A stretch of DNA of 64,000 nt, taken from contig NZ_JAGSGD010000001.1 of assembly GCF_016772415.1 (NCBI RefSeq), positions 1,054,001 through 1,118,000 of the forward strand. The letters are read 5' to 3'. The translations under genes and the position numbers were made by a program. This stretch comes from Phenylobacterium glaciei. GTDB taxonomy: Bacteria; Pseudomonadota; Alphaproteobacteria; Caulobacterales; Caulobacteraceae. The stretch's first letter is position 1; each line of letters starts with the position of its first letter. This document shows positions 17,367 through 33,055 of this stretch, piece by piece. The notes under the pieces were generated by a model. It did not search any database. It worked only from the letters and a program-made list of their open reading frames with translations, and was not told where the DNA came from.

Positions 17367-17993
17367 TCAGATTTCGATCTGCTCTGACAAGGCAAGGGCG
17401 TCATCCACCTCGATTCCCAGGTACCGAACCGTGCTCTCTAGCTTTCGATGACCTAGGAGGAGCTGGCAGGCGCGGAGATTGCCGGTCTTCTTGTAAAGCA
17501 GGGCCACCTTGGTTCGGCGCAGGCTGTGCGTGCCGTAGGCGCGGGGCTCCAGCTCGATCATGGTCACCCACTCACCGACAAGCCTGGCGTACTGACGTGT
17601 CGTCAGGTGGTCGCCGGGACGCGAACGGCTAGGAAAGAGCCAGTCATCCGCGCGCGTTCCGCGCAACGCCAGCCACGCAGATAGCGCGTCCCGGCTGGCG
17701 TCAGTGATCTCGAACGGTACGGGCCGGCCCGTCTTCTGCTGGATGACCGTGACTCGGTCCCGCATTATCCCGCCGGGCGCAACATCACTGACCCTGAGCT
17801 TTACGAGGTCGCACCCACGAAGCTTCGCGTCCAGAGCGCAGTTGAAGAGAGCCAGGTCCCGGACCTTACCCGCGGTCCTCAACTGCTGGCGAATTCCCCA
17901 TATGTGCTTGGGCTTGAGCGGGGGCTTCGCCCCAATGATGCGCCCTGAATTCCAGGGCCGTTTGGGCATGCGAAAGAGGTCGATTTGAGCCAT
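17367..17993 (-). CDS. Tyrosine recombinase, catalytic domain only
   Basis: A 208-residue integrase-family protein. All catalytic positions are visible: Arg59 (AKLRGCDL), Lys87 (QQKTGR), His156-x-x-Arg159 (THSLRR), His182 (LLGHRKLES) and nucleophile Tyr191 (VRYLG). It lacks the N-terminal SAM-like core-binding domain that phage and XerC-type integrases carry, leaving a short form like those found beside plasmid and island genes. DNA strand exchange is expected by family; its target is unknown. Decayed nuclease and kinase genes nearby fit a region of past insertion. It ends 170 bp from pyrC with no apparent shared function. Confidence 0.88.
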   Translation of the reverse strand: MAQIDLFRMPKRPWNSGRIIGAKPPLKPKHIWGIRQQLRTAGKVRDLALFNCALDAKLRGCDLVKLRVSDVAPGGIMRDRVTVIQQKTGRPVPFEITDASRDALSAWLALRGTRADDWLFPSRSRPGDHLTTRQYARLVGEWVTMIELEPRAYGTHSLRRTKVALLYKKTGNLRACQLLLGHRKLESTVRYLGIEVDDALALSEQIEI

Positions 17994-18162: not shown

Positions 18163-19257
18163 CTAAATCACCGATGGTTCGACAAAGCGCCAAGCAAGAG
18201 TTTCGCCGGCGCCGAACGGCACGATCGCAGTGGCGGCTGCTGCAATGGTCAGGGGGACTAGACTGGGAGATCGCTCCAGAATGACCATGCTCTCATTGGG
18301 TGCCAGGCCGTAGAAGCGAGGACCATTTTCTGACGAAAAGGCTTCGAGAGACCCGAGCGCATCCTCTTCATCGAACACCGTCGCATAGCTTTCCAGCGCG
18401 AAGGGAGCGTTGAAGATTCCCGCGCACCCGCACGCCGACTCCTTGTCGCCGACCGCATGGGGGGCGGAGTCCGTGCCCAGGAAGAACTTGGCGGAGCCAG
18501 AGGTCGCCGCCCGGCGCAAGGCGAGCCTGTGCGTCTCTCGCTTGGCGACCGGCAGGCAATAGAAGTGCGGTCTAATCCCGCCTTCGAACATGGCGTTTCG
18601 GTTGATTGCCAGATGGTGGGGCGTAATGGTCGCTGCCAGATTTGGGCCTCCGGCTTCGACGAAGGCCACCGCGTCGACCGTCGTAATGTGCTCGAAAACA
18701 ACCTTCAGGCCCGGAAAGTCCCGGATCAGCTTGCCGAGGATGCGTTCGATAAAGACCGCTTCCCGGTCAAAGATGTCGACATGGCGGTCCGTCACCTCGC
18801 CATGTAGAAGCAGCGGCATCCCGATGTTCTGCATGACCTCAAGCACAGGATAGATTTTCCGCACGTCGGTGACGCCATGATCCGAATTCGTCGTGGCGTG
18901 CGCGGGATAGAGCTTGCAGGCGGTGAACACGCCTTCGACAAAACCACGCTCGACTTCAGAGGCCTCGATCGTGTCGGTCAGATAGCAGGTCATCAGCGGT
19001 TGGAAGACCCGTCCTGGTTCAAGCGCGGCCAGGATTCGATCACGATAGGCTTTCGCCGCTGCGATCGTGGTGATCGGCGGACTGAGGTTAGGCATGACGA
19101 TGGCCCGTGCAAACTGTCGGGCCGTGTAGTTGACGACGGAGGCGAGCATCGGCCCATCGCGAAGATGGACATGCCAGTCGTCGGGTCGCCGAAGGGTCAG
19201 GCGGGTCGCCGAATTACGGGCCTCACCGGGCACGGCGTCGATGTCAGATGTCAGCAT
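18163..19257 (-). CDS. pyrC: Dihydroorotase (type II, PyrC)
   Basis: A 364-residue zinc amidohydrolase catalysing carbamoyl-aspartate to dihydroorotate in pyrimidine synthesis. Seen: the metal-binding [10 protein letters not shown], the carbamylated-lysine region [34 protein letters not shown], and a C-terminal [10 protein letters not shown] that supplies the catalytic Asp. This is the E. coli PyrC type (about 350 residues) rather than the longer PyrC/PyrX pair common in Caulobacter and many alphaproteobacteria. The ATG at 19257 overlaps the end of ilvD by 14 bp, which rejects a longer upstream reading. It is the third gene of an operon with a DNA-binding gene and ilvD. Confidence 0.93.
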
Positions 19258-21007
19258 AGACGTGGTCCTCGGCTGCGGCGCCGGGATGGGTGACCGCACC
19301 ATGCCGGGCGGTGCCCACGGTCTGCGCGTACTTCCAGATTGAGCCGGACTGGAAGCCATGCCTGCGTGGTGACCAGTTGGCCCGTCGCGCCGCCAGGGTC
19401 GCCTCGTCGAGCCGGATCGACAGGATACCGGCGTCTGCGTCGATATCGATGATGTCGCCATCTTCGATCAGGGCGATCGGGCCGCCGGTCGCGGCTTCCG
19501 GCCCGACATGGCCGATGCAAAGGCCTCTTGTTGCGCCCGAAAAGCGACCATCGGTGATCATCGCCACCTGCTCGCCCATGCCCTGCCCATAGATGGCGGA
19601 GGTGGTGGCGAGCATTTCCCGCATTCCAGGTCCGCCGCGCGGACCTTCGTAGCGAATCACGATCACCTCGCCGGCGGCATAGCGGCGGGCCATGACCGCG
19701 GCAAAGGCGTCTTCCTCGCGATCGAACACACGGGCCGGTCCGCTGAAGGTTAACCTGTGAAGCCCAGCGACCTTCACAATTGCGCCGTCCGGCGCGAGGT
19801 TGCCCCTCAGTCCAGTCAACCCGCCCGTGGGCGAAAGGGCGCGGTCGGTTGGAAAGACCACGGTCTGATCGTCGGGGACGCGAACCTCTGCAAGGTTTTC
19901 CGCCAGAGTCCGACCGGTCACGGTCAGGCAGTCGCCGTGCAGAAAACCTCCATCGAGCAGGGCCTTCAGAACCACTGGAACGCCGCCGATATCGTAGACG
20001 TCCTTTGCGAGGTAACGCCCGCCCGGCTTCAAATCGGCGATCAACGGCGTTCTCTTGAAGACCTCCGCGACGTCGAACAGATCGAATTCGAGCCCGGCCT
20101 CGTGCGCCATGGCGGGAAGGTGCAAGGCGGCATTGGTCGACCCTCCCGTGGCGGCGACCACGGCGGCGGCGTTTTCCAGAGACTTTCGGGTGACGATGTC
20201 TCGCGGCCGAATGCCGCTCTTCAGGAGCTCCATGACCGCGCGGCCTGCGGCTTCTGCGTATCGGTCGCGGGATTCATAGGGGGCCGGCGTTCCGGCCGAG
20301 CCTGGTAGGGCAAGACCGATCGCCTCGGAGACATAGGCCATGCTGTTGGCGGTATATTGTCCACCGCAAGACCCTGCTGACGGGCACGCGACCGTTTCCA
20401 GTTCGGCGAGATCCGCATCGGAGATTGTTCCGGCCGCGTGGGCGCCGACGGCCTCGAAGACGTCGAGCACCGTGACATCCTTACCGCGAAACCGGCCCGG
20501 CAGGATCGATCCGCCATAGAGGAAGACCGACGGCACATTGAGGCGAAGCATCGCCATCATGAGCCCCGGCAGAGTCTTGTCGCAGCCCGCAAGCCCGACA
20601 AGCGCGTCATAGCAGTGGCCGCGGACCGAAAGTTCCACCGAGTCCGCGATGACCTCCCGACTGACCAGAGACGCCTTCATACCGGCGTGGCCCATGGCGA
20701 TGCCGTCAGTGACGGTGATGGTCGTGAATTCCCTTGGTGTGCCGCCGGCAGCGGTCACGCCGCGCTTCGCGGCCTGGGCCTGACGCGAGAGCGTCATGTT
20801 ACAGGGAGCGGCCTCGTTCCAGGTCGTCACCACGCCGACGAAAGGCTGGGCGATCTCCTGGCTCGAGAGTCCCATGGCGTAGAGGAATGACCGGTGGGGC
20901 GCGCGTTCGGGGCCGACCGTTGTGTGCCGGCTTGGCAGCCGGGACTTGTCGAGCCGATCTGGTTCCCCGTCAAAGTTCGGGACAAGGTCGTTGGATTTAT
21001 CGTTCAT
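19244..21007 (-). CDS. ilvD: Dihydroxy-acid dehydratase
   Basis: A 587-residue IlvD/Edd-family iron-sulfur dehydratase, catalysing the penultimate step of valine, isoleucine and leucine synthesis. Seen: [13 protein letters not shown] near residue 60 with a cluster Cys, [15 protein letters not shown] near residue 140, [16 protein letters not shown] near 210, and [17 protein letters not shown] and [17 protein letters not shown] in the C-terminal domain. Length is usual for ilvD (about 560-615); the short-clade or sugar-acid dehydratase paralogues of this superfamily cannot be fully excluded. Its start overlaps the preceding helix-turn-helix gene by ATGA (21004-21007). Being downstream of a small DNA-binding gene and coupled to pyrC, it may be a second copy acquired as a unit. 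Confidence 0.92.
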
Positions 21008-21384: not shown

Positions 21385-22290
21385 TCAATCGACGGAAGGA
21401 GAGGGATCAGGCCGCTCATACCTGGCCAGCAATTCGCCAAGAAGCTGATTGGGGAACCGGCGGTTCTGAATAATGGCGTAGAAGCTTTCCGTAAGCTGCG
21501 GGATCCGGCAGTGCTCGACCAGCACTCCGGACTCCAGTTCGTCGCGCACGATGATCGGTGGCGCAAGCGTCACGCCTTCGCGCTCGCGGGCGAGCAGGCG
21601 CAGCATCGCCATGTCGTCGACTTCGGCCAGGATGATGGGCCGGATGCCTGCCAAATCTAGCAGACGATCGAACCCGACCCGAATGTCGCTGTCGAGGCTC
21701 GGAAGCAGAATCGGCTCGCTGCGAAGATCCTCCGGGAAGCGGAACGGAAGCTTGTCGGGCCTCGGCCGGCCGACGAGACTGACGGGCTGTTGGTTGAGCA
21801 GGTGATTGCGAAACGGCGCGCGGGCGTCGCGTTGAGCGGCGCTATTGGAAAGAACCACGTCTATGGCATGGGCTTCGAGCTGCGCGAAAAGGTCGCGTGT
21901 CGTGCCGGAACGCACGATCAGCTCCACATCCGCGCGACCGACCAATGGGCGCAGGAACTCAAGCTGGAAGTTGCGCGACAGGGTCGTCAGCGCGCCGACC
22001 CTCAGGACCTGACGGCTGGCCTGCGGCCGCCCGTCCAGGGTGCTCATCAACTCGTCGCCGGCCTGGAACACAGTGTCGGCATAGTCCAGCGAGATCTGAC
22101 CCGCCTCGGTCAGGACGAGCCGCTTGCCGACCCGTTCGAACAGCGGGTGGCCCATCTGGTGTTCGAGTTTCTGGATCTGCACCGATAGCGACGACTGCGA
22201 CAGGTTCAGTTGCTCGGCCGCTCGCGTCAGGCTGCCCTCATGCGCGACCGCCCAGAAATAGCGGAGATGGTTGAAGTTCAGGCTCTTCAT
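21385..22290 (-). CDS. LysR-family regulator (NhaR-like)
   Basis: A 301-residue LysR-type regulator. The N terminus NFNHLRYFWAVAHEGSLTRA, then AEQLNLSQSSLSVQIQKLE, is the winged helix-turn-helix with the FWxVxxEGS style of NhaR; the rest (TLSRNFQLEFLRPLVG ... DVVLSNSAA) is the periplasmic-binding-like effector domain. NhaR activates a sodium/proton antiporter gene in E. coli. Here the gene is divergent from dabB-dabA, and DabB is related to Mrp/NuoL antiporter subunits, so control of that operon by an ion or anion signal is likely. A perfect palindrome lies directly before its start codon. The partner of autoregulation is therefore visible in sequence. Confidence 0.9.
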   Translation of the reverse strand: MKSLNFNHLRYFWAVAHEGSLTRAAEQLNLSQSSLSVQIQKLEHQMGHPLFERVGKRLVLTEAGQISLDYADTVFQAGDELMSTLDGRPQASRQVLRVGALTTLSRNFQLEFLRPLVGRADVELIVRSGTTRDLFAQLEAHAIDVVLSNSAAQRDARAPFRNHLLNQQPVSLVGRPRPDKLPFRFPEDLRSEPILLPSLDSDIRVGFDRLLDLAGIRPIILAEVDDMAMLRLLAREREGVTLAPPIIVRDELESGVLVEHCRIPQLTESFYAIIQNRRFPNQLLGELLARYERPDPSPSVD

Positions 22291-22313
22291 ATCGTTCTAT
22301 AAAACAGAACGAT
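22291..22313. promoter_or_regulatory. LysR-type operator palindrome
   Basis: ATCGTTCT (22291-22298) and AGAACGAT (22306-22313) are a perfect 8-bp inverted repeat around a 7-bp AT-rich centre, fitting the T-N11-A rule for LysR sites. It abuts the regulator's ATG and lies 85 bp before dabB, so one site can repress the regulator and activate the operon. Confidence 0.75.
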
Positions 22314-22397
22314 TAGGCCGCAACAATGAATTTTCCTCCGTTTGGCAGCACGGCTACCTCGTCCCCCTAGCCGCTGGATGCGCTGAAGGGGAAACCT

Positions 22398-23957
22398 TTG
22401 CCAATCGATCTCCTACCCTTTGTCGCACCCTTAGCGCTGTTGATAAGCGCCGCCGTCGGTTTCGCGATCCCTGGCCGTAGGCCTCGCATGCTACCTCGGC
22501 TGGCAGAAGCCTCGGCCCTTGTCGCTCTTGTCGTCGCGGCGGTCGCGGCCGGATTGCTCATCCTGCACGGATCGGGGAACAGCCGGCTGCTCGGGCTGCA
22601 TGGCGTCGGTCTGGCAATCCGGTTGGATGCCGTCAGCGCCGTGATGTTCCTTCTGGTCTCGTTCATCGGCTGGGTCGTGGTGCGGTACGCCGCAACCTAT
22701 CTGGACGGCGAGGCGCGACAGGGCGCGTTCACTGGCTGGCTCTGCATGACCCTGGCCTCGGTGCTCCTCCTTGTGCTGTCGGGTAACTTGGTCCAGCTCG
22801 TTCTGGCGTGGGTTGCGACGAGCCTCTTTCTGCACCGGCTTCTGTTGTTCTATCCGGACCGCCTCGCCGCCCAGCGCGCAGCCGCGAAGAAGTTCGTCGC
22901 CGCTCGTCTTGGCGACGCGGCGCTGATCTCAGCGGCGGTGTTGCTGGCGCTGGCTTACGGCACGGCCGACATCGCGCAAATCCTGAGCAGTGCGCGCGCC
23001 GGAAACGGCGGCGGACTGGCGATCACCGCGGCCGGATTCCTGGCGGCGGCGGCCCTCTTGAAATCAGCGCAGTTCCCGATGCACGGCTGGTTGACCGAGG
23101 CGATGGAAACGCCAACGCCGGTGTCCGCGCTCCTGCACGCGGGCGTCATCAACGCCGGGGGGTTTCTGCTGATCCGCTTCGCTGACGTGATGTTTCTGGC
23201 GCCGGGCGTCCTGGCGGTCCTGGTGATGGTCGGCGGGTTCACCGCGCTCTTCGCCGGATTGGTGATGCTGACCCAGCCTGCGGTGAAGACCTCGCTGGCT
23301 TGGTCGACGGTCGCTCAGATGGGTTTCATGATCCTAGAGTGCGGGCTTGGGCTCTTCCCGCTGGCCTTGCTGCATATCGTGGCCCACTCGCTCTACAAGG
23401 CCCATTCGTTCCTGGCCTCCGGCGGTGCGGTTGACTTGATAGCCGCCAACCGCAGGCCCGGTCCCGTGGCCATTCCCAAGGCCGGCGCGGTCGGGCGGGC
23501 CTTCCTCCTGGCGCTGGTGATCTATGCCGTCGTCGGGTTCGGGTTCGGCTTCCAGCACAAGTCGCCGCAGGAGATCGCGCTGGGCGCCATTCTGATCTTC
23601 GGAGTCGCCTACATGCTGGCCCAAGGATTGGCGGACGCGGCGCCCAGAGCGTTGACCCAGCGGACGATCGGCTACGCGGTCGCCACCTCGGTCAGCTACT
23701 TCGGGCTGCAGGTCTTCGCCGTCTGGCTGACCGCCGGCGTCCTCCCCGCAGCTCCGGCGCCGGGGCCGCTGCAATGGGCGCTGATCGTGCTCGCGGTCAT
23801 CAGTTTCGGGCTTGTGGCCGTGGTCCAGGCGATGTTCCCGCTCTGGGCCTATCACCCCGCCGCCGCAGGCCTGCGCGTGCATCTCTCCAACGGCTTCTAC
23901 GCCAACGCGGTGTTCGACCGGCTGCTCCGCGGCTGGCGTCTGCGCGACGCAACCTGA
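22398..23957 (+). CDS. dabB: DabB-type inorganic-carbon transporter membrane subunit
   Basis: A 519-residue NuoL/MrpA-like proton-translocating membrane protein with about 13-14 helices. The Proton_antipo_M core is evident in the central helices: [20 protein letters not shown], then [20 protein letters not shown], with the conserved Lys and His. It is shorter than NuoL and pairs with a DUF2309/DabA gene, which identifies DabB. DabAB concentrates inorganic carbon in the cytoplasm using the proton gradient. Start is TTG at 22398, with AAGGGG about 8 bases before it. First gene of a compact four-gene operon, 108 bp from the divergent LysR gene. Confidence 0.88.
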
Positions 23958-23976
23958 ACTGTCCGGAGCCCGACAG

Positions 23977-26394
23977 ATGACGACTTCAGAGACTCTCATC
24001 CTGCGTGCCGCCCTGGAACTGGACGCCGCCGCCGATCGCGCCGCCCGCGCGATCCCTCCGGTCTGGCCGCTAGCGTCGAGCGTCGCAGTCAATCCGTTCC
24101 TCGGCCAGGCCGATGAGAACCTCGCCACCGTCGGCGCGCGCTTGGCGCGGGTGGCGGGTGTCGCGGTCACCATGCCCCGAAACTGGTACCAGGAGCGGAT
24201 CGCAAGCGGCGTCATCACTGACGGCGATCTGTCGGAGGCTTTGGCCGGCGCGCTGGAGGCGCCGCGTCCTGCGAGCCTCGCCGCGCTCAAGTCCGCCGCC
24301 CATGTGTTGAAACCCACAGCCCGCGCGCTGCCAACGATCGCGGATCTCGCCGCCGAGGTGTCGGGGATCGACTGGCCGGGGTTGATTGCGGAGCGCTTCG
24401 GGGCCTGGGCGGCCGGATACTTCGACGAGGGCCAGGCGCTCTGGGCCGCCCCACGCGGACGAGGCGCCTACGCTGCCTGGCGCGCCGTCGCCACCCACGA
24501 TCTGACGCCCGAGATTGTCGGCCTTGGAGGTTTTGCGACCCGCGTCTCGGATGCCCCGGAAAGTGCGCCAGACGCAGTTGCAGGCGCGGTGAGCCGGATC
24601 GCGCTCCCAGCCGAGGCTCTGGAAACCTACTTCCACCAGATGCTGATGACGCTGGGCGGCTGGGCGCAATATGCCCGATATCGACTTTGGCAGGCAGAAC
24701 TCGGCCGCGGCGCGGACGCGACGATCACCGACTTTCTGGCCATCCGCCTGATCTGGGAAGCTGCTCTGCTCGACCGTTATGAGGACAAGATCGCAGCCCG
24801 ATGGAAGGCTGTCATCGCCTCGCATTCGACCCCGGTCACACCGACAGCTGACCATGTCGTGGACGCCATCCTGCAGGAAGCGTCTGAACGCGCGGCGCAA
24901 CGGGCCTTGGCCGACACGCTCGCAGCGCCGGGAAGTGTCGCGACGGGGGGGCGACCTCTGCTCCAGGCCGCGTTCTGTATCGATGTCCGATCCGAGGTGT
25001 TCCGGCGGGCGCTGGAATCGGTCAATCCAAATATTCAGACGCTGGGGTTCGCCGGCTTCTTCGGCCTGACAGCCTCACATCGGCGCTTTGCCTCCGACGT
25101 TCAGGAACTGCGGCTGCCTGTCTTGCTGAATCCCGGCCTTACCTCCTGCTCGGGCAGGTCGGAGAACGCTGCAGCAGATCAGTCTGCGCGGTTCAAGGCC
25201 CGCGCCAAGCGGGCCTGGGGTCGGTTCAAGCTGGCCGCCGTGTCGTCCTTCGCCTTCGTCGAGGCGACGGGACCAATCTATGTCGGCAAGCTTGTGGGCG
25301 ATGCTTTAGGATTGCATAGCAATCGGGCGCCCAACGATCCTGCGCCACGTCTTGATCCCGCTCTCGACCGCGACTCTCGAACTAAAGCGGCCGCAACGGT
25401 GCTGCGGGCCATGTCGCTGACGACCAACTTTGCAAGGCTCGTGCTGCTGGCCGGGCACGGCGCAAACGTCGTCAACAACCCCCATGCAAGCGGACTGCAT
25501 TGCGGCGCATGTGGCGGATATCCGGGTGACGTAAATGCGCGGCTGCTGGCTGCACTGCTGAACGACGCGGAGGTGCGCAGAGGTCTGGTTCTTGAGGGAA
25601 TCAAGATTCCGGACGACGCCCTTTTCGTCGGCGCCTTGCACGACACGACGACGGACGCGGTCACGCTCTATGCCGAGGACCTCCCGTCCATTTCCCATGG
25701 GCCTGACCTAAGCGCCGCGAGGGCCTGGCTCGCGGCCGCGGGCGATGTCGCGCGGGGCGAGCGGGCCTTGCGTTTGCCTCGGGGGGCGGGGGAGAGCCTT
25801 GCCAGGCGCAGCCGCGACTGGGCTGAGGTGCGACCGGAATGGGGGCTGGCAGGCTGCAAGGCGTTTATCGCAGCCCCACGTCGGCGCACGACGGGCAAAT
25901 CCCTAGAAGGTCGCGCCTTCCTTCATGACTATGACTGGAAGGCTGACAATGACTCCGGCGTTTTGGAGTTGATCCTGACCGCGCCTGTGGTCGTCGCGAG
26001 CTGGATCAGCTTGCAGTATTACGGATCGACCGTAGCGCCCGAGGTCTTCGGCGCCGGCAACAAGCTCCTGCACAACGTGACCGGCGGCATCGGCGTCGTT
26101 GAGGGCAACGGCGGCGTAATGCGGGCCGGTCTCCCTTGGCAATCGGTCCATGACGGCGAGCGCTACGTCCACGAGCCGCTTCGCCTGTCTGTCTGCATCG
26201 AAGCGCCCCGCGAAGCGATGACCGAGATCCTCAGGCGTCACGACGGCGTTCGCGCGCTATTCGACAATCGCTGGCTGCATCTCTTCGCCCTCGATGAGGC
26301 CGGCAGGATGGTCTGGCGCTACGCCGGCGATCTCCAATGGACCGCCATGAGCGTCGCGGCCGATCCCGGCATGTCTCTGAAGATGGCGGTCTGA
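23977..26394 (+). CDS. dabA: DabA, beta-carbonic-anhydrase-like subunit (DUF2309/UPF0753)
   Basis: An 805-residue DUF2309 protein, the peripheral zinc subunit of the DabAB inorganic-carbon pump. The likely zinc and catalytic residues are all present at the expected arrangement: Cys334 and Asp336 in [14 protein letters not shown], His494 in [13 protein letters not shown], Cys509 in LHCGACGG, with a nearby Arg338. This resembles the Cys/Asp/His/Cys set of beta-carbonic anhydrases. The start ATG at 23977 follows GGAG; a longer reading from 23812 runs through dabB. It begins 19 bp after dabB and ends 3 bp before cysD, so it is clearly in operon. The hydration of CO2 coupled to proton flux is family knowledge; the linkage to CysD suggests another anion could also be considered. 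Confidence 0.92.
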
Positions 26395-26397
26395 CCT

Positions 26398-27303
26398 ATG
26401 AAACGCGCCATCTCCCACCTGTCATGGCTGGAATCGGAGGCCATCCACATCCTGCGCGAAGCGGTCGCCGAAGCCAGCAACCCCGTCATGTTGTTCTCTG
26501 CGGGCAAGGACTCGACCGTGATGGCGCACCTGGCGATGCGCGCCTTCTATCCGTCCAAGCCGCCGTTCCCACTGCTGCATGTGGACTCGACCTGGGATTT
26601 CAGGTCGCTGATCGCGTTCCGTGACGACTTCGCCGCCAAGCATGGCTTCGAGCTCATCGCCCATTCAAATGAGGAAGGGCGCGCGGCGGGCATCAATCCC
26701 TTCGACCATGGGGACCGCTATACCCTGATCATGCGGACTGAGCCGCTCAAGACCGCCCTCGACCTTGGCGGCTACGACATTATCTTCGGCGGAGCCCGTC
26801 GCGATGAGGAGAAGTCGCGTGCCAAGGAACGCATCATGTCGGTTCGCGGCGCGGGCCACGCCTGGGAGCCGCGCCAGCAGCGACCAGAGCTCTGGCGGCT
26901 CTACAATACCCGCTTGGGCAAGGATCAGACGGCCCGGGTCTTTCCGCTCTCCAACTGGACCGAGACGGATATCTGGGCCTACGCGATGCTCCACAAGATT
27001 GAACTGGCGCCGCTGTACTACGCCGCGCCACGGCCGGTCGTTCAACGCGGCGGGGCCTTCGTCGTGGTCGACGAGGAGAGCCGCATGCGGTTCCAGCCCG
27101 GCGACGAAATCCAGACCAGGACCGTGCGCTTCCGGACGCTCGGCTGCTGGCCGGTCACCGGTGCGGTTGAGTCTGAAGCGACCGATCTCGCCGCGGTCGT
27201 CGATGAAACTCTGCGGGCGTCGTCCTCCGAGCGGCAGGGGCGGATCAGCGACGGGGAGGATGGCGGCTCGCTCGAACAGAAAAAGCGAGAGGGCTATTTC
27301 TGA
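26398..27303 (+). CDS. cysD: Sulfate adenylyltransferase small subunit, CysD-like
   Basis: A 301-residue PP-loop protein of the CysD/PAPS-reductase superfamily. Seen: VMLFSAGKDSTVMAHLA (PP-loop SxGKDS) near residue 37, LLHVDSTWDF, then IIFGGARRDEEKSRAKER near 125, FPLSNWTETDIWAYA near 180, and a C-terminal LEQKKREGYF exactly as in CysD. CysD transfers AMP to sulfate to form APS, but needs the GTPase CysN, and no cysN (or cysNC) is present in this window. It begins 3 bp after dabA and is followed 3 bp later by the DUF6671 gene. Either a distant CysN serves it or this CysD copy has a new role with DabAB. Confidence 0.92.
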   Translation: MKRAISHLSWLESEAIHILREAVAEASNPVMLFSAGKDSTVMAHLAMRAFYPSKPPFPLLHVDSTWDFRSLIAFRDDFAAKHGFELIAHSNEEGRAAGINPFDHGDRYTLIMRTEPLKTALDLGGYDIIFGGARRDEEKSRAKERIMSVRGAGHAWEPRQQRPELWRLYNTRLGKDQTARVFPLSNWTETDIWAYAMLHKIELAPLYYAAPRPVVQRGGAFVVVDEESRMRFQPGDEIQTRTVRFRTLGCWPVTGAVESEATDLAAVVDETLRASSSERQGRISDGEDGGSLEQKKREGYF

Positions 27304-27305
27304 AC

Positions 27306-28172
27306 ATGACAGCTGACGATCGTCCCTACAAAGACACGATCGCCGTGCTCGCTACGATGCACGACAAGGAGCGCGTGGTCGCGCCAGTCCTAAAGGAAGG
27401 GCTGGGGTTGCGGGTCGCTCTGGCGCTCGGCCTGAATACAGACCGGTTCGGCACATTCAGCCGTGATGTCGAGCGGACCGGCTCCCAACTTGATGCGGCC
27501 AGGGCCAAGATCGCCGCGGGGTTCGAGTACGCGCCCTATGCTCGAGTGGGTATCGCCAGCGAAGGCAGCTTTGGCCCGCACCCCTATATCCCCTTCCTTG
27601 CTTTGGGCCGCGAGCTGGTCCTGCTGATCGATCGTGAGCGCGGCCTCGAACTGACGGGCCACTTTGCGAGCCTCGAGACCAACTATGGCCATGCGGTCGT
27701 CTCGGACATGGAAACAGCGGTCGCTTTTGCTGAACGGTCTAGATTTCCCGAACATGGGTTGATCGTCATGGGCTGTGTCGACGAGAAGCCCGCGCCTGAT
27801 CTCGCCCTGTTCAAGGACGTCATCGACCACGCTGCTCTGGAAATAGCTGTTGGCCAGGTCGTCGCCACATGCGGCGCGGCCTTCGTCGAGGCGGATATGC
27901 GCGCCCACCGCAATCCAACGCGGATGCGCGCGATCGAGCGCGCGGCAAGCGACCTGGTTCGCCGGTTTCGCAGTGAATGCCCTGCCTGCAAACACCCCGG
28001 ATTTGATGTCACCGAACGCATTACGGGTCTGCCTTGCGAATGGTGCGGGGAGCCGACGCATGTGATCCGCGCGGAGGTCTTGACCTGCCAGGCTTGCGAC
28101 TACCGACAGGAGCGCCAGGCGACTTGCGCCACGACGGCGGACCCGGGGCGCTGCGAGAGCTGCAATCCTTGA
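27306..28172 (+). CDS. DUF6671 family protein with C-terminal zinc ribbon
   Basis: A 288-residue protein resembling the family DUF6671, whose function is not known. Seen: an N-terminal domain beginning IAVLATMHDKERVVAPVLKE, with ARVGIASEGSFGPHPYIPF and LALGRELVLLIDRERGLEL; an AHRNPTRMRAIERAASDLVRR helix (Asn/Arg/Glu); and about eight paired cysteines from residue 223 onward (CPACKHPGF, LPCEWCGEP, LTCQACDYRQER, CATTADPGRCESC), forming zinc-ribbon-like knuckles. It follows cysD by 3 bp, so it belongs to the dab operon. A role as adaptor, or in handling a small carboxylate or sulfonate, can be imagined but nothing in the sequence proves it. Confidence 0.8.
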   Translation: MTADDRPYKDTIAVLATMHDKERVVAPVLKEGLGLRVALALGLNTDRFGTFSRDVERTGSQLDAARAKIAAGFEYAPYARVGIASEGSFGPHPYIPFLALGRELVLLIDRERGLELTGHFASLETNYGHAVVSDMETAVAFAERSRFPEHGLIVMGCVDEKPAPDLALFKDVIDHAALEIAVGQVVATCGAAFVEADMRAHRNPTRMRAIERAASDLVRRFRSECPACKHPGFDVTERITGLPCEWCGEPTHVIRAEVLTCQACDYRQERQATCATTADPGRCESCNP

Positions 28173-28510: not shown

Positions 28511-29404
28511 TCAGTTTTCATTAAGGCCGAAATCCCGTGTGTGGAGGCGCCGTTTCCACAGAGCCTCAATATGCTCAACCTCGGGCCTCAGCAGATCTGG
28601 TGATGTGCGCTGAAGGATGCTGAACCGCAGATCCGAGGGCTGGCTAGCCTTAAGCCCAGCATTGCCGCCATGACCGCTGTCGCTATAGCTCATCCAGCGC
28701 CCAAGGAGGTTCTCGTGCCCTGCCGCGGAACCCACATACCCGCTCCGGCGGCGGACATCGAAGACGTAGTAGACGCCTCGCCATTCGGCCAGTTTGGCCC
28801 GCCAGCTGGCGGGGATGACCCGCAACTGATCCCAGGTCAGCACCAGCTCGTCAGCCGGCGGCATGGACGTCACAAATTGGCTTTCCAGGGTAATCGCGCT
28901 AACCGGCAGCCGATTGCGCTCCGCTCGCCGAAACCATGAGCGCTCAGGCGCCGGCCAATCTATCGTGAGCTTCCCCCCCCAAGCGCGCCAAGTGTCCAGA
29001 GGCTCCAGGTCCATCGCAACGAGGTCCGTCCCCGCCTCCAGGCCCTTGACGCCCATGGTGGCCAGCTCCTGGAGATCAGGGCGAGCCCAGAATTCCGGAC
29101 CTGGTATGAGTGAAGTGCCGTTGACCGCAAAGAGGCCTGCAAAGACGGCCGAGCCGGCCTCCAGGCCCGCGAAGGCCGCCACGTGTCGTGCTCGGCTGAT
29201 CGCGCGGACAGCCATGCCATCCTGGAGGCTTTGGTAGAGGTGGAAGAGATCCGGGCGCTCCGAAATGAGCGACGGCAAGACCCGGCGGACTGCGGCCTCG
29301 CGGGGCCTGTGCCGAAGTACAACGACTGAGCCGGGATCCATTCCAGAGCTGGAAAGGAGGAAATTCAACTCCAACCCAGCCGCCGCCTGATCCCCCTCGT
29401 ACAT
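28511..29404 (-). CDS. GIY-YIG nuclease-domain protein
   Basis: A 297-residue protein with a C-terminal GIY-YIG nuclease domain of about 95 residues: RGVYYVFDVRRRSGYVGSA carries the GVY...YVG pair, followed by the Arg of LLGRWMSYSDSG, the metal-binding Glu in RPEVEHIEALWKRRL, and the late Asn in FGLNEN. The first ~200 residues form a separate alpha/beta domain (GSVVVLRHRPREAAVRRVLP, PERSWFRRAERNRLPV) seen together with GIY-YIG in island genes. Bases 29405-29451 separate it from a divergent XRE regulator, so it is probably tightly repressed. DNA cleavage is expected from the fold; anti-phage defence or homing is inference. The start ATG lacks a clear Shine-Dalgarno. Confidence 0.8.
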   Translation of the reverse strand: MYEGDQAAAGLELNFLLSSSGMDPGSVVVLRHRPREAAVRRVLPSLISERPDLFHLYQSLQDGMAVRAISRARHVAAFAGLEAGSAVFAGLFAVNGTSLIPGPEFWARPDLQELATMGVKGLEAGTDLVAMDLEPLDTWRAWGGKLTIDWPAPERSWFRRAERNRLPVSAITLESQFVTSMPPADELVLTWDQLRVIPASWRAKLAEWRGVYYVFDVRRRSGYVGSAAGHENLLGRWMSYSDSGHGGNAGLKASQPSDLRFSILQRTSPDLLRPEVEHIEALWKRRLHTRDFGLNEN

Positions 29405-29451
29405 GGTATAACTGATAAACTCGGCTTCAAGCGCCAGTCAACGCTCTGCCC

Positions 29452-29703
29452 ATGGATATGCGGAGGCTGGTGGGGCGTAACTTGCGCCGATTTCGCGCTG
29501 CGGCGGGTCTTACCCAGGAACAGTTGTCCGCGCGTACTGGGTTTCCGCAACAGCACATAAGCGAGATCGAGCGGGGGCATGGAAACCCGACGGTTCTGAC
29601 GCTCTATGAGATTGGCCTCGCACTCGGCGTAACCCCGGTTGATCTGGTGAGCCCCGACCAAGAGGCCGAGCGTGAATCGCCACCAGCAGTGAGGAAATTT
29701 TGA
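29452..29703 (+). CDS. XRE-family transcriptional regulator
   Basis: An 83-residue Cro/C1-type helix-turn-helix protein: NLRRFRAAAGLTQEQLSART, then GFPQQHISEIERGHGNPTV, then LYEIGLALGVTPVDLV, with a charged tail. It is divergent from the GIY-YIG nuclease gene with only 47 bp between start codons, the arrangement of a controller protein with its nuclease. Compare C proteins of restriction-modification loci, which are of similar size; here no cognate methylase is directly beside it, although a methyltransferase gene lies 0.7 kb away. Confidence 0.87.
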   Translation: MDMRRLVGRNLRRFRAAAGLTQEQLSARTGFPQQHISEIERGHGNPTVLTLYEIGLALGVTPVDLVSPDQEAERESPPAVRKF

Positions 29704-29973
29704 ACGCCTAGGGCGGATGCCGTCTTAGACTATTTCTAGCTGAGCAGGGCTGGTCCGGAGTGGCGCGAACGGGGGCTGCAGTCGGTGACCCTGTCCCACA
29801 AAGTCGTGGAGAGGGCACCTGGGACGCCGCACGGGTCAAGCTGCCACTGAGCCTGGCTAGCTCGCTTCACGCCCAAGGTGGAATAGGATCGGGCTCGCTT
29901 CCCGGGCCCGGATTTCAGACGGCCGGCTCGACTTGAGCAGCCCGTGGCGTTGAAGGCGCCACGGGCCGTAACC

Positions 29974-30444
29974 TCACCGAACTTTTCGGCGCCGGGAGGC
30001 CTCAAGGGCCTTATCTGTGGCTTTGCTCTCGTCCTCGGTTTGAACCTTTTGGTAGAGGTGTGATTTCCCTCTCCGATCCAGGATCTTCTGGGCGCCGTAG
30101 ATGATGCCCGCCAAGACTTCATCACTGGCATCAAACAGGGGCACGGGCGGCTCAGTCTCCAGGCCAAAATTTTTAATCAGGCTGAAGACCTGCTTTGCGG
30201 CAGGGACGTTTCCCTTGGCTCCAGAGTTCGCGAGCCCTTTGAAGATAAGGTCGAGAACGGTGAGGTTCACTAGTTTCCCGTTTTCGACAACAGTGACCAC
30301 CCTATCCAGGTGTTCCTGCATGCGTTGCTTGAAACCTTTGCGGCCTCGAGGTCTGCCGCTGGGGTTTCCGGATTGTAGCGGCTTGTAGCGGCTATGGACG
30401 GGCGGGTTGCCGTAGCCGACAGGCTGATCAGTTGGTTGGGACAT
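29974..30444 (-). CDS. DUF5681-domain protein
   Basis: A 156-residue protein whose N terminus, SRYKPLQSGNPSGRPRGRKG followed by FKQRMQEHLDRVV, is the DUF5681 signature (a basic GNPxGRPxG stretch that looks DNA-binding); the rest is helical with a charged tail. The ATG at 30444 is preferred to a TTG at 30453, although an AGGAG lies 3 bp before the TTG and 12 bp before the ATG. It overlaps the methyltransferase gene by 17 bp and is co-transcribed with it. DUF5681 genes often follow ParB-methylase fusions in alphaproteobacterial islands and near phage terminases. The 270-bp gap 29704-29973 downstream holds no gene. Confidence 0.82.
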   Translation of the reverse strand: MSQPTDQPVGYGNPPVHSRYKPLQSGNPSGRPRGRKGFKQRMQEHLDRVVTVVENGKLVNLTVLDLIFKGLANSGAKGNVPAAKQVFSLIKNFGLETEPPVPLFDASDEVLAGIIYGAQKILDRRGKSHLYQKVQTEDESKATDKALEASRRRKVR

Positions 30445-31885
30445 TGTCTTCAAGAGCTCCTTCGCGGGATGTTGCTAGTTCATCGAAAGTCTCCCCCGTG
30501 GCCCCGAGCACCGCGGGCTTTCCGGTGTAGGCCTGCCAGCGGCGGCAAATAACGTCACAGAACCAAGGGTCCAGTTCGAGGAGACGGGCGCGCCGGCCAG
30601 TTTTCTGGGCGGCGATGAGGGTCGTCCCGGATCCCCCGAAGGGGTCCAGGACGATCTCATTTCGTGCGCTGACGTCTTTGATGGCGTCAGCAACCATGGC
30701 GACGGGCTTGCAGGTGCTGTGGAGCGCAAGTGTCGCGTCCCGGCCACGCCCGAAGGCGTTCATGCCCGGGTATTCCCAAACGTTCGAGCGCCAGCGGCCC
30801 GTCTCGCCTAAGCCGAAATTGTTTCGGTGCGGAGCTGTACCAACTTTGAAGACACCGATCAGTTCGTGGCGACTTCGGTAGAATGTTCCCATCCCGGCGT
30901 TGGACTTCGCCCAGACGATCAAGTTCTTCTGCTCGGAGTAGACCGCAGCGGCGGCCGCAACCAAGGTCGGGTAGCCCTTCCAATCCATGCACTGAAAATG
31001 GATGGCGCCATCCAAGCTATAAGCGGCCGCGGCGGCCATGGCCTTACGAAGGAATTCTTGGAATTCTTCGTCGCTGAGTTCCCCAGCCGCCGCTACGAAT
31101 TCACGGCGCTTGATCTTCCCATGGCCCCCTACGTAGCCGTCGATGGGAGTGTTGTAGGGAGGATCCGCGAACACCATTCGGGCGCGCTCGTCGCCCATGA
31201 GCATCTCGTAGCTTGAGACGTCACAGGCATCTCCGCAGTGCAGCTTGTGGACTCCCAACAGGAAGACGTCACCGGAGCGGGTGACGATTGGGCCCTGGCC
31301 TTCAGGGATGCGGTTGTCTTGTTCGTCCTTCGGCGCCGGCTTGTGTTCGAGAAGGCTGTCCAGTTCTGCCCCATCAAAGCCCGTTAGCTCGAGAGGAGTG
31401 TTGAGCTGTAGATTCTCGAGGGATTGAAGCTCAGCCGGGAGCAAATCCTCATGCCAACCAGACTCCATGGCGAGCTTGTTGGCCGCTAGTCGGTAGACAC
31501 GGATTTCAGCAGGGCTGAGATGCGCAATGCGGATAACCGGGATCTTTGCAAGTCCGAGCTCTTGCGCGATTTCAAACCGACATTGCCCATCGATGATAGT
31601 GTTGTCGGGATCGACCGTGATGGCGTCTACAAAGCCACGGCTCAGGATAGAGGCGCGCATCTTCGCGCGCTTTTTGGCGGAGTGTGTGTGTGGGTTGCCC
31701 GGATAGAGCTTAAGCAATCCCGTCTCGACGAGATCGATCTTGAGATCCAGGCTCTCGGGAAGCAGCGACGCAGCCAAGGACTGACTAGAGTCCTTCCGAC
31801 GCGCGGCATCGCCAGCGCGACGCGCATTTCGAATCTGAGGCACACCAATTTCCAGTTTCGGTGGGCTTGGTCTTCCGATCCACAA
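30428..31885 (-). CDS. ParB-domain / DNA methyltransferase fusion
   Basis: A 485-residue fusion. Residues ~46-180 are a ParB/Srx-like domain (LVETGLLKLYPGNPHTHSA, then IIDGQCRFEIAQELGLAKIP). Residues ~200-470 are an amino-methyltransferase of the beta order: catalytic DPPY at 241-244 (FADPPYNTPI) comes before the AdoMet motif DPFGGSGTTLIAA near residue 416, the CcrM-like arrangement implying N6-adenine (or N4-cytosine) methylation. Target sequence is unknown. Start is TTG at 31885 and is not secure. It overlaps the DUF5681 gene. Such fusions are typical of phages and integrative islands, where they may alter host or phage marks; no restriction enzyme is coupled to it. Confidence 0.88.
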   Translation of the reverse strand: MWIGRPSPPKLEIGVPQIRNARRAGDAARRKDSSQSLAASLLPESLDLKIDLVETGLLKLYPGNPHTHSAKKRAKMRASILSRGFVDAITVDPDNTIIDGQCRFEIAQELGLAKIPVIRIAHLSPAEIRVYRLAANKLAMESGWHEDLLPAELQSLENLQLNTPLELTGFDGAELDSLLEHKPAPKDEQDNRIPEGQGPIVTRSGDVFLLGVHKLHCGDACDVSSYEMLMGDERARMVFADPPYNTPIDGYVGGHGKIKRREFVAAAGELSDEEFQEFLRKAMAAAAAYSLDGAIHFQCMDWKGYPTLVAAAAAVYSEQKNLIVWAKSNAGMGTFYRSRHELIGVFKVGTAPHRNNFGLGETGRWRSNVWEYPGMNAFGRGRDATLALHSTCKPVAMVADAIKDVSARNEIVLDPFGGSGTTLIAAQKTGRRARLLELDPWFCDVICRRWQAYTGKPAVLGATGETFDELATSREGALEDNVPTN

Positions 31886-32177
31886 TTGGAACGGAGACCC
31901 CTCAGATTCTGTGCCCGTGGTTCAAACGAAGATGAGCGGACCGCGGTCAATCTGTAAAGCGGAATAGTCGGGCGGACCGATCTTTCTAACCATCTATCCG
32001 CGGTCACAGAACGGAGGCCGAAGGCTGTAAAGCGGGGATAAGCACTGGACTTCAGTCGCGACCAGAGCGCTCATCACCTTGAAGCTACAGGCAAAAGATC
32101 GCGCGACGAATATGCCCGGGTACTCCGGGCTCGCGGCAGTGCCGGGACCATCCCCGCCCGGAAAGCGAGATTCTGAC

Positions 32178-32642
32178 ATGACCAAATTTACTAGGATTCA
32201 GGCCCAGCTACTCACCCAAGCCGCGGCGACGGAAGGCTTTATCCCTCCCGCAGATACGGCACAGACGACGATCACCTCCCTCATCCGACGGGGCATGCTG
32301 ATCTCCTTGCCGGGAGCAGACGGGCCAAGCCGTTTGATCATCACTCAGGCGGCCCGCGCCGCGATTGGAGGCGCCGCGGCGCAATCAGCCAACGCGGACG
32401 CTGACGAGCCAGCTACTGTGCCCATAGTAAAGGCCCAGACTAAGACTGACTTGGTTGTCACGCTGCTTTCACGCCCTGAAGGCGTGACCATAGAGGACCT
32501 CATGCGGGCGACCGGATGGCAGGCCCACTCAGTCCGGGGGGCAATCTCCGGATCGATCAAAAGCGGGAGGGGCCTCGACGTCGTCTCGCAGAAAATCGAT
32601 GGCCAGCGTGTCTACCGTGTCCTCGTGGACGCCACGACGTGA
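32178..32642 (+). CDS. DUF3489-domain protein
   Basis: A 154-residue protein with two small winged-helix-like parts: an N-terminal segment (TRIQAQLLTQAAATEGFIPP) and a C-terminal DUF3489 domain (KTDLVVTLLSRPEGVTIEDL, then MRATGWQAHSVRGAISGSIK), joined by an Ala-rich linker. The ATG at 32178 gives a start typical of the family; a longer ORF reading from 32079 is rejected. GTGA overlap with the next gene marks it as the first gene of a three-gene recombinase module found in many alphaproteobacteria. It probably binds DNA with the recombinase. Confidence 0.83.
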   Translation: MTKFTRIQAQLLTQAAATEGFIPPADTAQTTITSLIRRGMLISLPGADGPSRLIITQAARAAIGGAAAQSANADADEPATVPIVKAQTKTDLVVTLLSRPEGVTIEDLMRATGWQAHSVRGAISGSIKSGRGLDVVSQKIDGQRVYRVLVDATT

Positions 32643-33055
32643 CCAATCCCCTTGCGATAACTGAAGAGGTTCGGGCGCTGGAGCACCTGGACCTCGATGG
32701 CCTCAGGCACGCCTGGCGCCGCCGCTATGGCGCGCCGCCAAAGCTCCGCTCAGTGGACCTCCTGGCCAGGCTGCTGGCTTGGCGCATCCAAGCTGAAGCT
32801 TTCGGCGGGCTGGATGCCGAGACCCGCCGCAATCTTCGGCGCGCGTCGGCTTCGCCGCGAGACCGGCAACTGTCTGCCGGCTCGCTGATAGTGCGCGAAT
32901 GGCAAGGCCGACGGCATGAGGTGACCGTGGGCGAGTGCGCCTACCAGTATGAGGGCCAGACCTACCAAAGTCTCTCGGCCGTCGCCCAGGCCATCACCGG
33001 GGTTAAGTGGAACGGGCCCCGGTTCTTTGGCCTGCGGGCGGGAAGCCCCACCTGA
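32639..33055 (+). CDS. DUF2924-domain protein
   Basis: A 138-residue basic DUF2924 protein, starting with GTG at 32639, which overlaps the previous stop (GTGA). The motif block includes LRHAWRRRYGAPPKLRSVDL, then LARLLAWRIQAEAFGGL, VREWQGRRHEVTV, and the final AITGVKWNGPRFFGLR, all characteristic. It ends by overlapping the recombinase start as TGATG. DUF2924 proteins nearly always sit just before a large serine recombinase and are supposed to be recombination helper proteins. There is no experimental support for this in sequence. Confidence 0.87.
   Translation: MTNPLAITEEVRALEHLDLDGLRHAWRRRYGAPPKLRSVDLLARLLAWRIQAEAFGGLDAETRRNLRRASASPRDRQLSAGSLIVREWQGRRHEVTVGECAYQYEGQTYQSLSAVAQAITGVKWNGPRFFGLRAGSPT

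What the first reader, a model, noticed from the sequence alone, without database searches (positions are those of the whole stretch)
22291..28172. DabAB carbon-uptake genes joined to CysD and DUF6671 in one operon under a NhaR-like regulator
dabB, dabA, cysD and a DUF6671 gene are spaced by 19, 3 and 3 bp, with a divergent LysR gene and a perfect LysR-type palindrome between. DabA has a complete zinc/catalytic set (Cys334, Asp336, His494, Cys509). CysD is complete but has no CysN partner in view. A sulfate-activating enzyme with an inorganic-carbon pump and a cysteine-rich protein of unknown function suggests an undescribed pathway, for example vectorial uptake or activation of an anion other than bicarbonate, or sulfur-linked CO2 use. 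The operon arrangement is seen; the role is inference.
Basis: partly seen in the sequence, partly recalled or inferred. Interest (0 to 1): 0.75.

Follow-up and report, generated by a model that had tools for sequence, protein, structure and literature searches.

The report
Low-CO2 backup gene island
A bacterium without the usual CO2-fixing enzyme carries a CO2 pump operon beside spare copies of ordinary enzymes whose relatives need bound CO2 to work, which looks like a kit for living when CO2 is scarce.

Summary
The operon is real: LysR | dabB-dabA-cysD-DUF6671. It recurs: 10 of 56 DUF6671 loci, window included, hold CysD, DabA and DUF6671 within 8 kb. The comparison shows something broader. 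The window also holds ilvD and pyrC beyond LysR. Elsewhere DUF6671 sits near an inorganic-carbon transporter (37 of 56; DabAB or SbtA) and near enzymes that need CO2 as a carbamate, or bicarbonate: IlvD, PyrC, TsaC, rarely FolC or MurF; in single loci BioD, pyruvate carboxylase, RuBisCO. IlvD/PyrC/FolC/Mur/Alr/TsaC lie within 8 kb in 21 of 56 DUF6671 loci, 0 of 80 DabA or SbtA loci lacking DUF6671, and 1 of 9 plasmid DabA controls; in 5 of 10 loci fetched after the idea formed. The host has no RuBisCO and further PyrC, IlvD-family and CysD copies. Best reading: an island for growth at low CO2. DUF6671 is predicted to have a YjjX/ITPase-like fold plus zinc-ribbon-like cysteines. Why CysD belongs, and what DUF6671 does, stay open. 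13 of 56 loci show no such link. Nothing here is an experiment.

The parts
18163..19461 (-). pyrC (dihydroorotase), extra copy; true start uncertain, the ORF as listed overlaps the end of ilvD
   Evidence: TIGR00856 449.6 bits, cut-off 292.95; lysine of the KLYP motif kept
19244..21007 (-). ilvD (dihydroxy-acid dehydratase), extra copy
   Evidence: TIGR00110 677.1 bits, cut-off 618.15; CDK motif lysine kept
21385..22290 (-). LysR-type regulator, NhaR-like
   Evidence: PF00126 and PF03466; NhaR model 135.6 bits, under its cut-off of 219
22291..22313 (.). palindrome ATCGTTCT-N7-AGAACGAT, likely LysR operator
   Evidence: sequence, inverted-repeat scan, core in 27 of 52 LysR-DabB spacers
22398..23957 (+). 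dabB, membrane subunit of the inorganic-carbon transporter
   Evidence: PF00361 128.7 bits; PRK08168 379.6, just under its cut-off of 380
23977..26394 (+). dabA, CO2-hydrating subunit with complete zinc site
   Evidence: PF10070 871.5 bits; alignment to 9rd0_A
26398..27303 (+). cysD (sulfate adenylyltransferase subunit 2), extra copy without adjacent cysN
   Evidence: TIGR02039 426 bits, PRK12563 444.9 bits; 1zun_A E 3.1e-109
27306..28172 (+). DUF6671 protein: predicted YjjX/ITPase-like domain followed by a cysteine-rich C-terminal part
   Evidence: PF20376 177.7 bits; model pLDDT 86.2, pTM 0.80; fold searches; eight invariant cysteines between 225 and 286

Best explanation
This is an inorganic-carbon scarcity island. 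Shown by sequence: a DabAB CO2-hydrating pump in one probable operon with CysD and DUF6671, a divergent LysR with a recurrent operator, and extra copies of IlvD and PyrC beside it. Inferred: when CO2/HCO3- runs low, LysR turns the island on; DabAB raises internal bicarbonate; the extra enzymes keep up steps that fail first because they rest on a carbamate made from CO2. In IlvD and PyrC this is a carbamylated active-site lysine. In related islands FolC and MurF belong to the same class (recalled), TsaC makes its product from threonine, ATP and CO2/bicarbonate, and BioD uses CO2 (recalled). DUF6671 is the marker of these islands and probably acts on a nucleotide. CysD is predicted to be another step that suffers at low CO2, by an unknown mechanism, and to work with the CysN encoded elsewhere.
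For: CO2/carbamate families (IlvD, PyrC, FolC, MurD, MurE, MurF, Alr, TsaC) within 8 kb: 15 of 45 and 6 of 11 DUF6671 loci, 0 of 45 DabA and 0 of 35 SbtA loci without DUF6671; 41 control families: 3 of 45, 1 of 11, 4 of 45, 6 of 35. Fisher 5.5e-10 by loci; 5.2e-6 with 8 of 26 groups at 60% identity. 5 of 10 positive among loci fetched after the idea formed. Transporter of either of two unrelated kinds in 37 of 56. Direct same-strand neighbours such as TsaC-DUF6671-DabA (L225, L227), DUF6671-IlvD (L070, L079), DUF6671-PyrC (L056, L069, L072). L230 TsaC-BioD-BioA-IlvD-PyrC-DUF6671-DabA; L228 with pyruvate carboxylase subunits and RuBisCO; Methylocystis plasmid with IlvD, PyrC, DUF6671, CysD, BioD, carboxylases, DabAB. 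Carbamyl-lysine in the IlvD/EDD family (PMC5770437 passages), dihydroorotase (PMC8659124, start of abstract), MurE (PMC3829189 passages); bicarbonate as limiting substrate of human YRDC, the TsaC homologue (PMC5951830 passages). No RuBisCO in the host.
Against: 13 of 56 DUF6671 loci have no transporter, CysD or CO2 enzyme of the list nearby. The enzyme list was drawn partly from the first 45 loci; MurD, MurE and Alr gave no hit. The island enzymes keep the carbamylated lysine, so they are not CO2-independent forms, and no sequence sign of a lower CO2 need was found. Plasmid-only comparison is weak: 6 of 12 against 1 of 9, p 0.08 one-sided. A Salinivibrio plasmid has TsaC next to DabA without DUF6671 and L155 has CysD near DabA without it. 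Chromosomal controls are from one class only. TerC recurs (10 of 56 against 0 of 80) with no direct CO2 role known to me. CysD is unexplained. No expression or growth data.
Confidence: 0.6

Rival explanations
1. One reading: DabA-CysD-DUF6671 is a pathway that takes up or activates an anion other than bicarbonate, or couples sulfate activation to CO2. CysD would adenylate the anion and DUF6671 would process the nucleotide product.
For: CysD and DUF6671 are 2 bp apart here and direct neighbours in many loci; the DUF6671 model resembles nucleotide-handling folds; this CysD has no CysN beside it.
Against: CysD is absent from most DUF6671 loci (15 of 56 have it within 8 kb); DUF6671 goes with SbtA or DabA alone elsewhere; DabA keeps the CO2 site; in L017, L021 and L072 CysD comes with CysN, pointing to ordinary sulfate activation.
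Confidence: 0.08
2. A mobile hot spot that gathers unrelated metabolic genes; the joint occurrence has no functional meaning beyond shared mobility.
For: A phage-type integrase gene lies near (17367-17993); a second copy with pyrC, ilvD, cysD and DUF6671, where no DabA was found, is in the same genome; 12 plasmid records carry variants.
Against: The 41 control families do not accumulate; the same enzyme types recur with different DUF6671 lineages and with two unrelated transporters; many are direct same-strand neighbours.
Confidence: 0.15
3. A metal-scarcity or stress island (for instance zinc): PyrC and DabA are zinc enzymes, TerC and RaiA occur in related islands, and the spare copies serve under metal stress.
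For: TerC within 8 kb in 10 of 56 loci, RaiA in 2; PyrC and DabA bind zinc.
Against: IlvD, FolC, MurF and TsaC are not zinc enzymes (recalled); SbtA bicarbonate permeases replace DabAB in other loci; no Zur site or zinc importer was searched for.
Confidence: 0.12

Closest known systems
DabAB / DAB2 inorganic-carbon uptake complex (Halothiobacillus neapolitanus)
   Same: DabA and DabB families, zinc and Asp residues, probable CO2 hydration with bicarbonate kept inside
   Different: Host without RuBisCO; operon continues into CysD and DUF6671, with IlvD and PyrC copies alongside; the link with LysR itself is common
SbtA sodium-dependent bicarbonate permease loci
   Same: Takes the place of DabAB next to DUF6671 in 11 of 56 loci
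   Different: Not present in this island; the genome's SbtA-family gene is elsewhere (C1:3104 kb)
CysD of sulfate adenylyltransferase CysDN
   Same: Full-length CysD over family cut-offs
   Different: No adjacent CysN; 55% identical to the genome's CysD that lies beside CysN
YjjX / RdgB / HcgB-type nucleotide enzymes (ITPase-like fold)
   Same: Predicted fold of DUF6671 residues about 9-224
   Different: Little sequence likeness (10-16% in the aligned parts), extra cysteine-rich C-terminal part, no NTPase family match in Pfam
Zinc-starvation backup islands under Zur (recalled)
   Same: Idea of spare copies of cofactor-dependent enzymes, PyrC among them
   Different: The common need here is CO2/HCO3-, not zinc; LysR regulator

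Membership tests
DabAB inorganic-carbon transporter | DabA family match with zinc ligands and catalytic Asp | tested here: met
   PF10070 871.5 bits; C334, D336, H494, C509 aligned to DabA2
DabAB inorganic-carbon transporter | Adjacent DabB membrane subunit | tested here: met
   22398-23957, PF00361 128.7 bits
DabAB inorganic-carbon transporter | Raises internal inorganic carbon in cells | not testable with these tools
   needs uptake or growth assays
CysDN sulfate adenylyltransferase | CysD subunit over family cut-off | tested here: met
   TIGR02039 426, PRK12563 444.9 bits
CysDN sulfate adenylyltransferase | CysN partner encoded next to CysD | tested here: not met
   no CysN beside it; the one CysN over the cut-off is at C1:2816530
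NhaR | Score over the NhaR equivalog cut-off | tested here: not met
   135.6 bits against 219
DUF6671 | PF20376 over its cut-off | tested here: met
   177.7 bits against 23.8
YjjX/ITPase superfamily | Fold | tested here: met
YjjX/ITPase superfamily | Sequence family match and nucleotide pyrophosphatase activity | tested here: inconclusive
   no NTPase family in a relaxed Pfam scan of nine members, whose filters drop weak matches; activity not testable
Carbamyl-lysine enzymes (IlvD, PyrC) | Family match and the lysine that is carbamylated in relatives | tested here: met
   literature passages and abstract start; the modification itself was not tested
Autotrophic CO2-concentrating mechanism | RuBisCO in the genome | tested here: not met
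   no PF00016 match in the genome
Zur-type zinc backup island | Zur box, COG0523, zinc-independent paralogues | not tested
   no search was made

The most novel reading that the evidence does not exclude
Bacteria carry mobile kits for CO2 starvation whose logic is carbamate chemistry: an inorganic-carbon pump plus extra copies of enzymes that need CO2 as a carbamate (IlvD, PyrC, FolC, MurF, TsaC, BioD), marked by a new nucleotide enzyme, DUF6671. Membership then predicts unrecognised CO2-dependent enzymes, first of all CysD, the first step of sulfate activation.
Probability: 0.4. Interest if true: 0.92.

Novelty: new variant of a known kind. Interest (0 to 1): 0.78.

Why it matters
If right, heterotrophs treat CO2 as a scarce cofactor with its own backup genes, and carbamylation in ordinary metabolism is a real weak point at low CO2. 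It gives DUF6671 a first functional setting, suggests why DabAB occurs in a bacterium without RuBisCO, and offers a gene-neighbourhood route to further CO2-dependent enzymes.

Tried and rejected
Set aside: transport or activation of another anion, metal backup, plain mobile hot spot (see rivals). CO2-independent forms of the enzymes: not supported, the lysine is kept in 12 of 12 IlvD, 9 of 9 PyrC and 2 of 2 FolC island rows aligned. The idea that CO2 enzymes accompany DabAB in general: not supported, 0 of 45 DabA and 0 of 35 SbtA loci without DUF6671, though a Salinivibrio plasmid has TsaC beside DabA without DUF6671. BioA is no marker: 5 of 56 against 3 of 80. Small ATP-grasp-like matches of DUF6671 residues 121-199 (mostly 61-75 residues aligned) were not used. 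A relaxed Pfam scan gave no NTPase match. No DUF6671 match in the phage records. Plasmid searches with two other DUF6671 queries returned 12 records each, the same ones.

How the counts were made: baits were chosen after most of the first 45 loci had been seen. BioD, BioA, pyruvate carboxylase and RuBisCO baits were added only after the second set had been seen and are not in the 8 families. The second set has 10 newly fetched genome loci (L224-L233) and L234, a second place on an Arthrobacter plasmid already in the first set. L051 lies in the window's own genome. L022 counts through a 31% IlvD/EDD match beside a DUF6671 gene in three pieces; the MurF of L072 is broken. Four of 56 loci gave no usable DUF6671 protein for grouping. 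Of 123 plasmid records with DabA, nine without DUF6671 were examined as controls.

Literature: ten searches of an open-access library; searches found no paper. Those aimed at novelty were 8, 9, 37, 96 and 101; no listed title or abstract start describes this gene set, and the papers listed in 96 and 101 were not opened. Seen: PMC13144422 outline, abstract, passages; PMC5770437, PMC3829189, PMC5951830, PMC8920986 passages; PMC8659124 start of abstract in a listing.
Full report
The observation. The window holds a divergent LysR gene (21385-22290, -), a perfect palindrome (22291-22313), and dabB, dabA, cysD and DUF6671 on the + strand with gaps of 19, 3 and 2 bp. The operon products match their families. 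DabA has the full zinc set; numbered from the ATG at 23977 the residues are C334, D336, H494 and C509, aligned with C351, D353, H524 and C539 of the solved DabA2. The LysR is only NhaR-like. Beyond LysR, on the - strand, lie ilvD (19244-21007) and pyrC (18163-19461).

The genome. The window is part of a 4.24 Mb assembly. It has one DabA, no RuBisCO large subunit, and one CysN over the cut-off, beside a CysD. It has four CysD-type genes: this one; one 94% identical; one 63.5% identical just downstream of an NADP isocitrate dehydrogenase; and the one beside CysN at 55%. The PyrC family has three members and the IlvD/EDD family five. Two of each belong to this island and to a second island at about C1:373-378 kb, where DUF6671, CysD, IlvD and PyrC are 95, 94, 99 and 96% identical to the window's and no DabA was found. 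An SbtA-family gene lies elsewhere in the genome.

Recurrence. DUF6671 loci were collected. Six loci besides the window show the order LysR, DabB, DabA, CysD, DUF6671 (L015, L016, L019, L020, L068, L076). L055 shows DabA, CysD, DUF6671 at a contig end; L083 and L084 hold the genes on two strands. In all, 10 of 56 loci, window included, have DabA, CysD and DUF6671 within 8 kb. The set is conserved, but CysD is optional.

The wider pattern. Of the 56 loci, 37 have an inorganic-carbon transporter within 8 kb, DabAB or the unrelated SbtA. Within 8 kb, IlvD-family genes occur in 14, PyrC in 8, TsaC in 8, FolC in 2 and a broken MurF in 1, often adjacent on the same strand. What these enzymes share is CO2. 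IlvD-family enzymes have a carbamylated lysine in the CDK motif (PMC5770437 passages). Dihydroorotase has one (PMC8659124, start of abstract). MurE has one (PMC3829189 passages); for MurF and FolC I rely on recall. TsaC makes threonylcarbamoyl-AMP from CO2/bicarbonate; for human YRDC the Km for bicarbonate is 13 mM, explained by a threonine carbamate (PMC5951830 passages). BioD, in L230 and in the Methylocystis island, takes CO2 as substrate (recalled). In L228, DUF6671 and TsaC lie between a RuBisCO gene and two pyruvate carboxylase subunit genes; two genes between TsaC and RuBisCO look like cbbO and cbbQ by eye only. L230 reads TsaC, BioD, BioA, IlvD, PyrC, DUF6671, DabA; no DabB was detected there.

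The test. Baits were 8 CO2/carbamate families (IlvD, PyrC, FolC, MurD, MurE, MurF, Alr, TsaC), 41 control families from E. coli neighbourhoods, many from the same pathways, and island genes. Hits of at least 80 bits within 8 kb were counted. CO2 families: 15 of 45 in the first DUF6671 set, 6 of 11 in the second, 0 of 45 DabA loci and 0 of 35 SbtA loci without DUF6671. Control families: 3 of 45, 1 of 11, 4 of 45 and 6 of 35. The second set holds 10 genome loci fetched after the idea was formed, 5 positive, and one further place on an already known plasmid. MurD, MurE and Alr gave no hit. By loci Fisher p is 5.5e-10; with DUF6671 grouped at 60% identity, 8 of 26 groups are positive, p 5.2e-6. 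Plasmids only: 6 of 12 DUF6671 records against 1 of 9 DabA records, one-sided p 0.08; other loci, 14 of 43 against 0 of 80.

Limits of the test. The bait list was drawn up after most of the first set had been seen; only the second set is independent. The DabA and SbtA controls are chromosomal samples of one class, while TsaC counts come mainly from other classes and plasmids. One positive (L022) is a 31% IlvD/EDD match beside a broken DUF6671. L051 is in the window's own genome. Loci are not phylogenetically independent; the grouping only partly corrects for that.

Regulation. The operator core GTTC-N9-GAAC is found in 27 of 52 LysR-DabB spacers against 0.18 expected, 17 of the 27 in loci without DUF6671. 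LysR plus operator looks like a general DabAB unit, around which the island has been built.

Interpretation. The best reading is an island for growth when inorganic carbon is scarce. DabAB supplies bicarbonate. The extra enzymes, which keep the carbamylated lysine, hold up steps that would fail when carbamates fall apart. Shown: gene content, order, residues, recurrence, counts. Inferred: induction by low CO2, benefit of extra copies, DUF6671 activity, and above all the reason for CysD. Since CysD comes with CysN in L017, L021 and L072 (L017), it most likely makes APS, and the pattern predicts that this step is CO2-sensitive.

Against this reading. 13 of 56 loci show no transporter, CysD or listed CO2 enzyme. 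TerC recurs (10 of 56 against 0 of 80) and has no direct CO2 role that I know; alkaline, CO2-poor habitats might explain it, which is speculation. Isocitrate dehydrogenase recurs in 3 of 56 (1 of 80 in controls). TsaC sits beside DabA without DUF6671 in a Salinivibrio plasmid, and CysD near DabA without DUF6671 in L155.

Novelty. The parts are known families. The grouping was not found in the searches and 101 of an open-access library, which misses most subscription papers. I call it a new variant of a known kind and keep the stronger claim as the novel case.

Noticed in passing
L051 (G000:C1:362100-382000): Second island in the same genome with ilvD-pyrC divergent from cysD-DUF6671, 94-99% identical to the window's genes, where no DabA was found.
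   Followed up: partly
L066:7998-10573 (G000:C1, about 2355-2358 kb): A third CysD, 63.5% identical, just downstream of an NADP isocitrate dehydrogenase; the same dehydrogenase type lies near DabA or DUF6671 in L021, L023 and L027.
   Followed up: partly
L017, L056, L070, L071, L072, L074, L077, L078, L084, L234: TerC-family membrane proteins within 8 kb of DUF6671 in 10 of 56 loci against 0 of 80 control loci; no explanation found.
   Followed up: no
L251:8411-11838 (Salinivibrio plasmid): TsaC directly downstream of DabA without DUF6671.
   Followed up: no
L070 and L234 (Arthrobacter sp. U41 plasmid unnamed2): Two places on one plasmid each carry SbtA, DUF6671, IlvD and TerC genes; the record's source is Lake Untersee, which I recall as very alkaline and CO2-poor.
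   Followed up: no
window 17367-17993 and 28511-34686: Mobile-element surroundings: a phage-type integrase and, by eye only, a DNA-methyltransferase-like ORF (30428-31885) and a serine-recombinase-like ORF (33007-34686); 28511-29404 matched no Pfam or NCBIfam family.
   Followed up: no
L024:3937-7467 (Bacillota): DUF6671 shortly upstream of a gene like a 2-oxoacid:ferredoxin oxidoreductase alpha subunit (below equivalog cut-offs), another CO2-linked enzyme type.
   Followed up: partly
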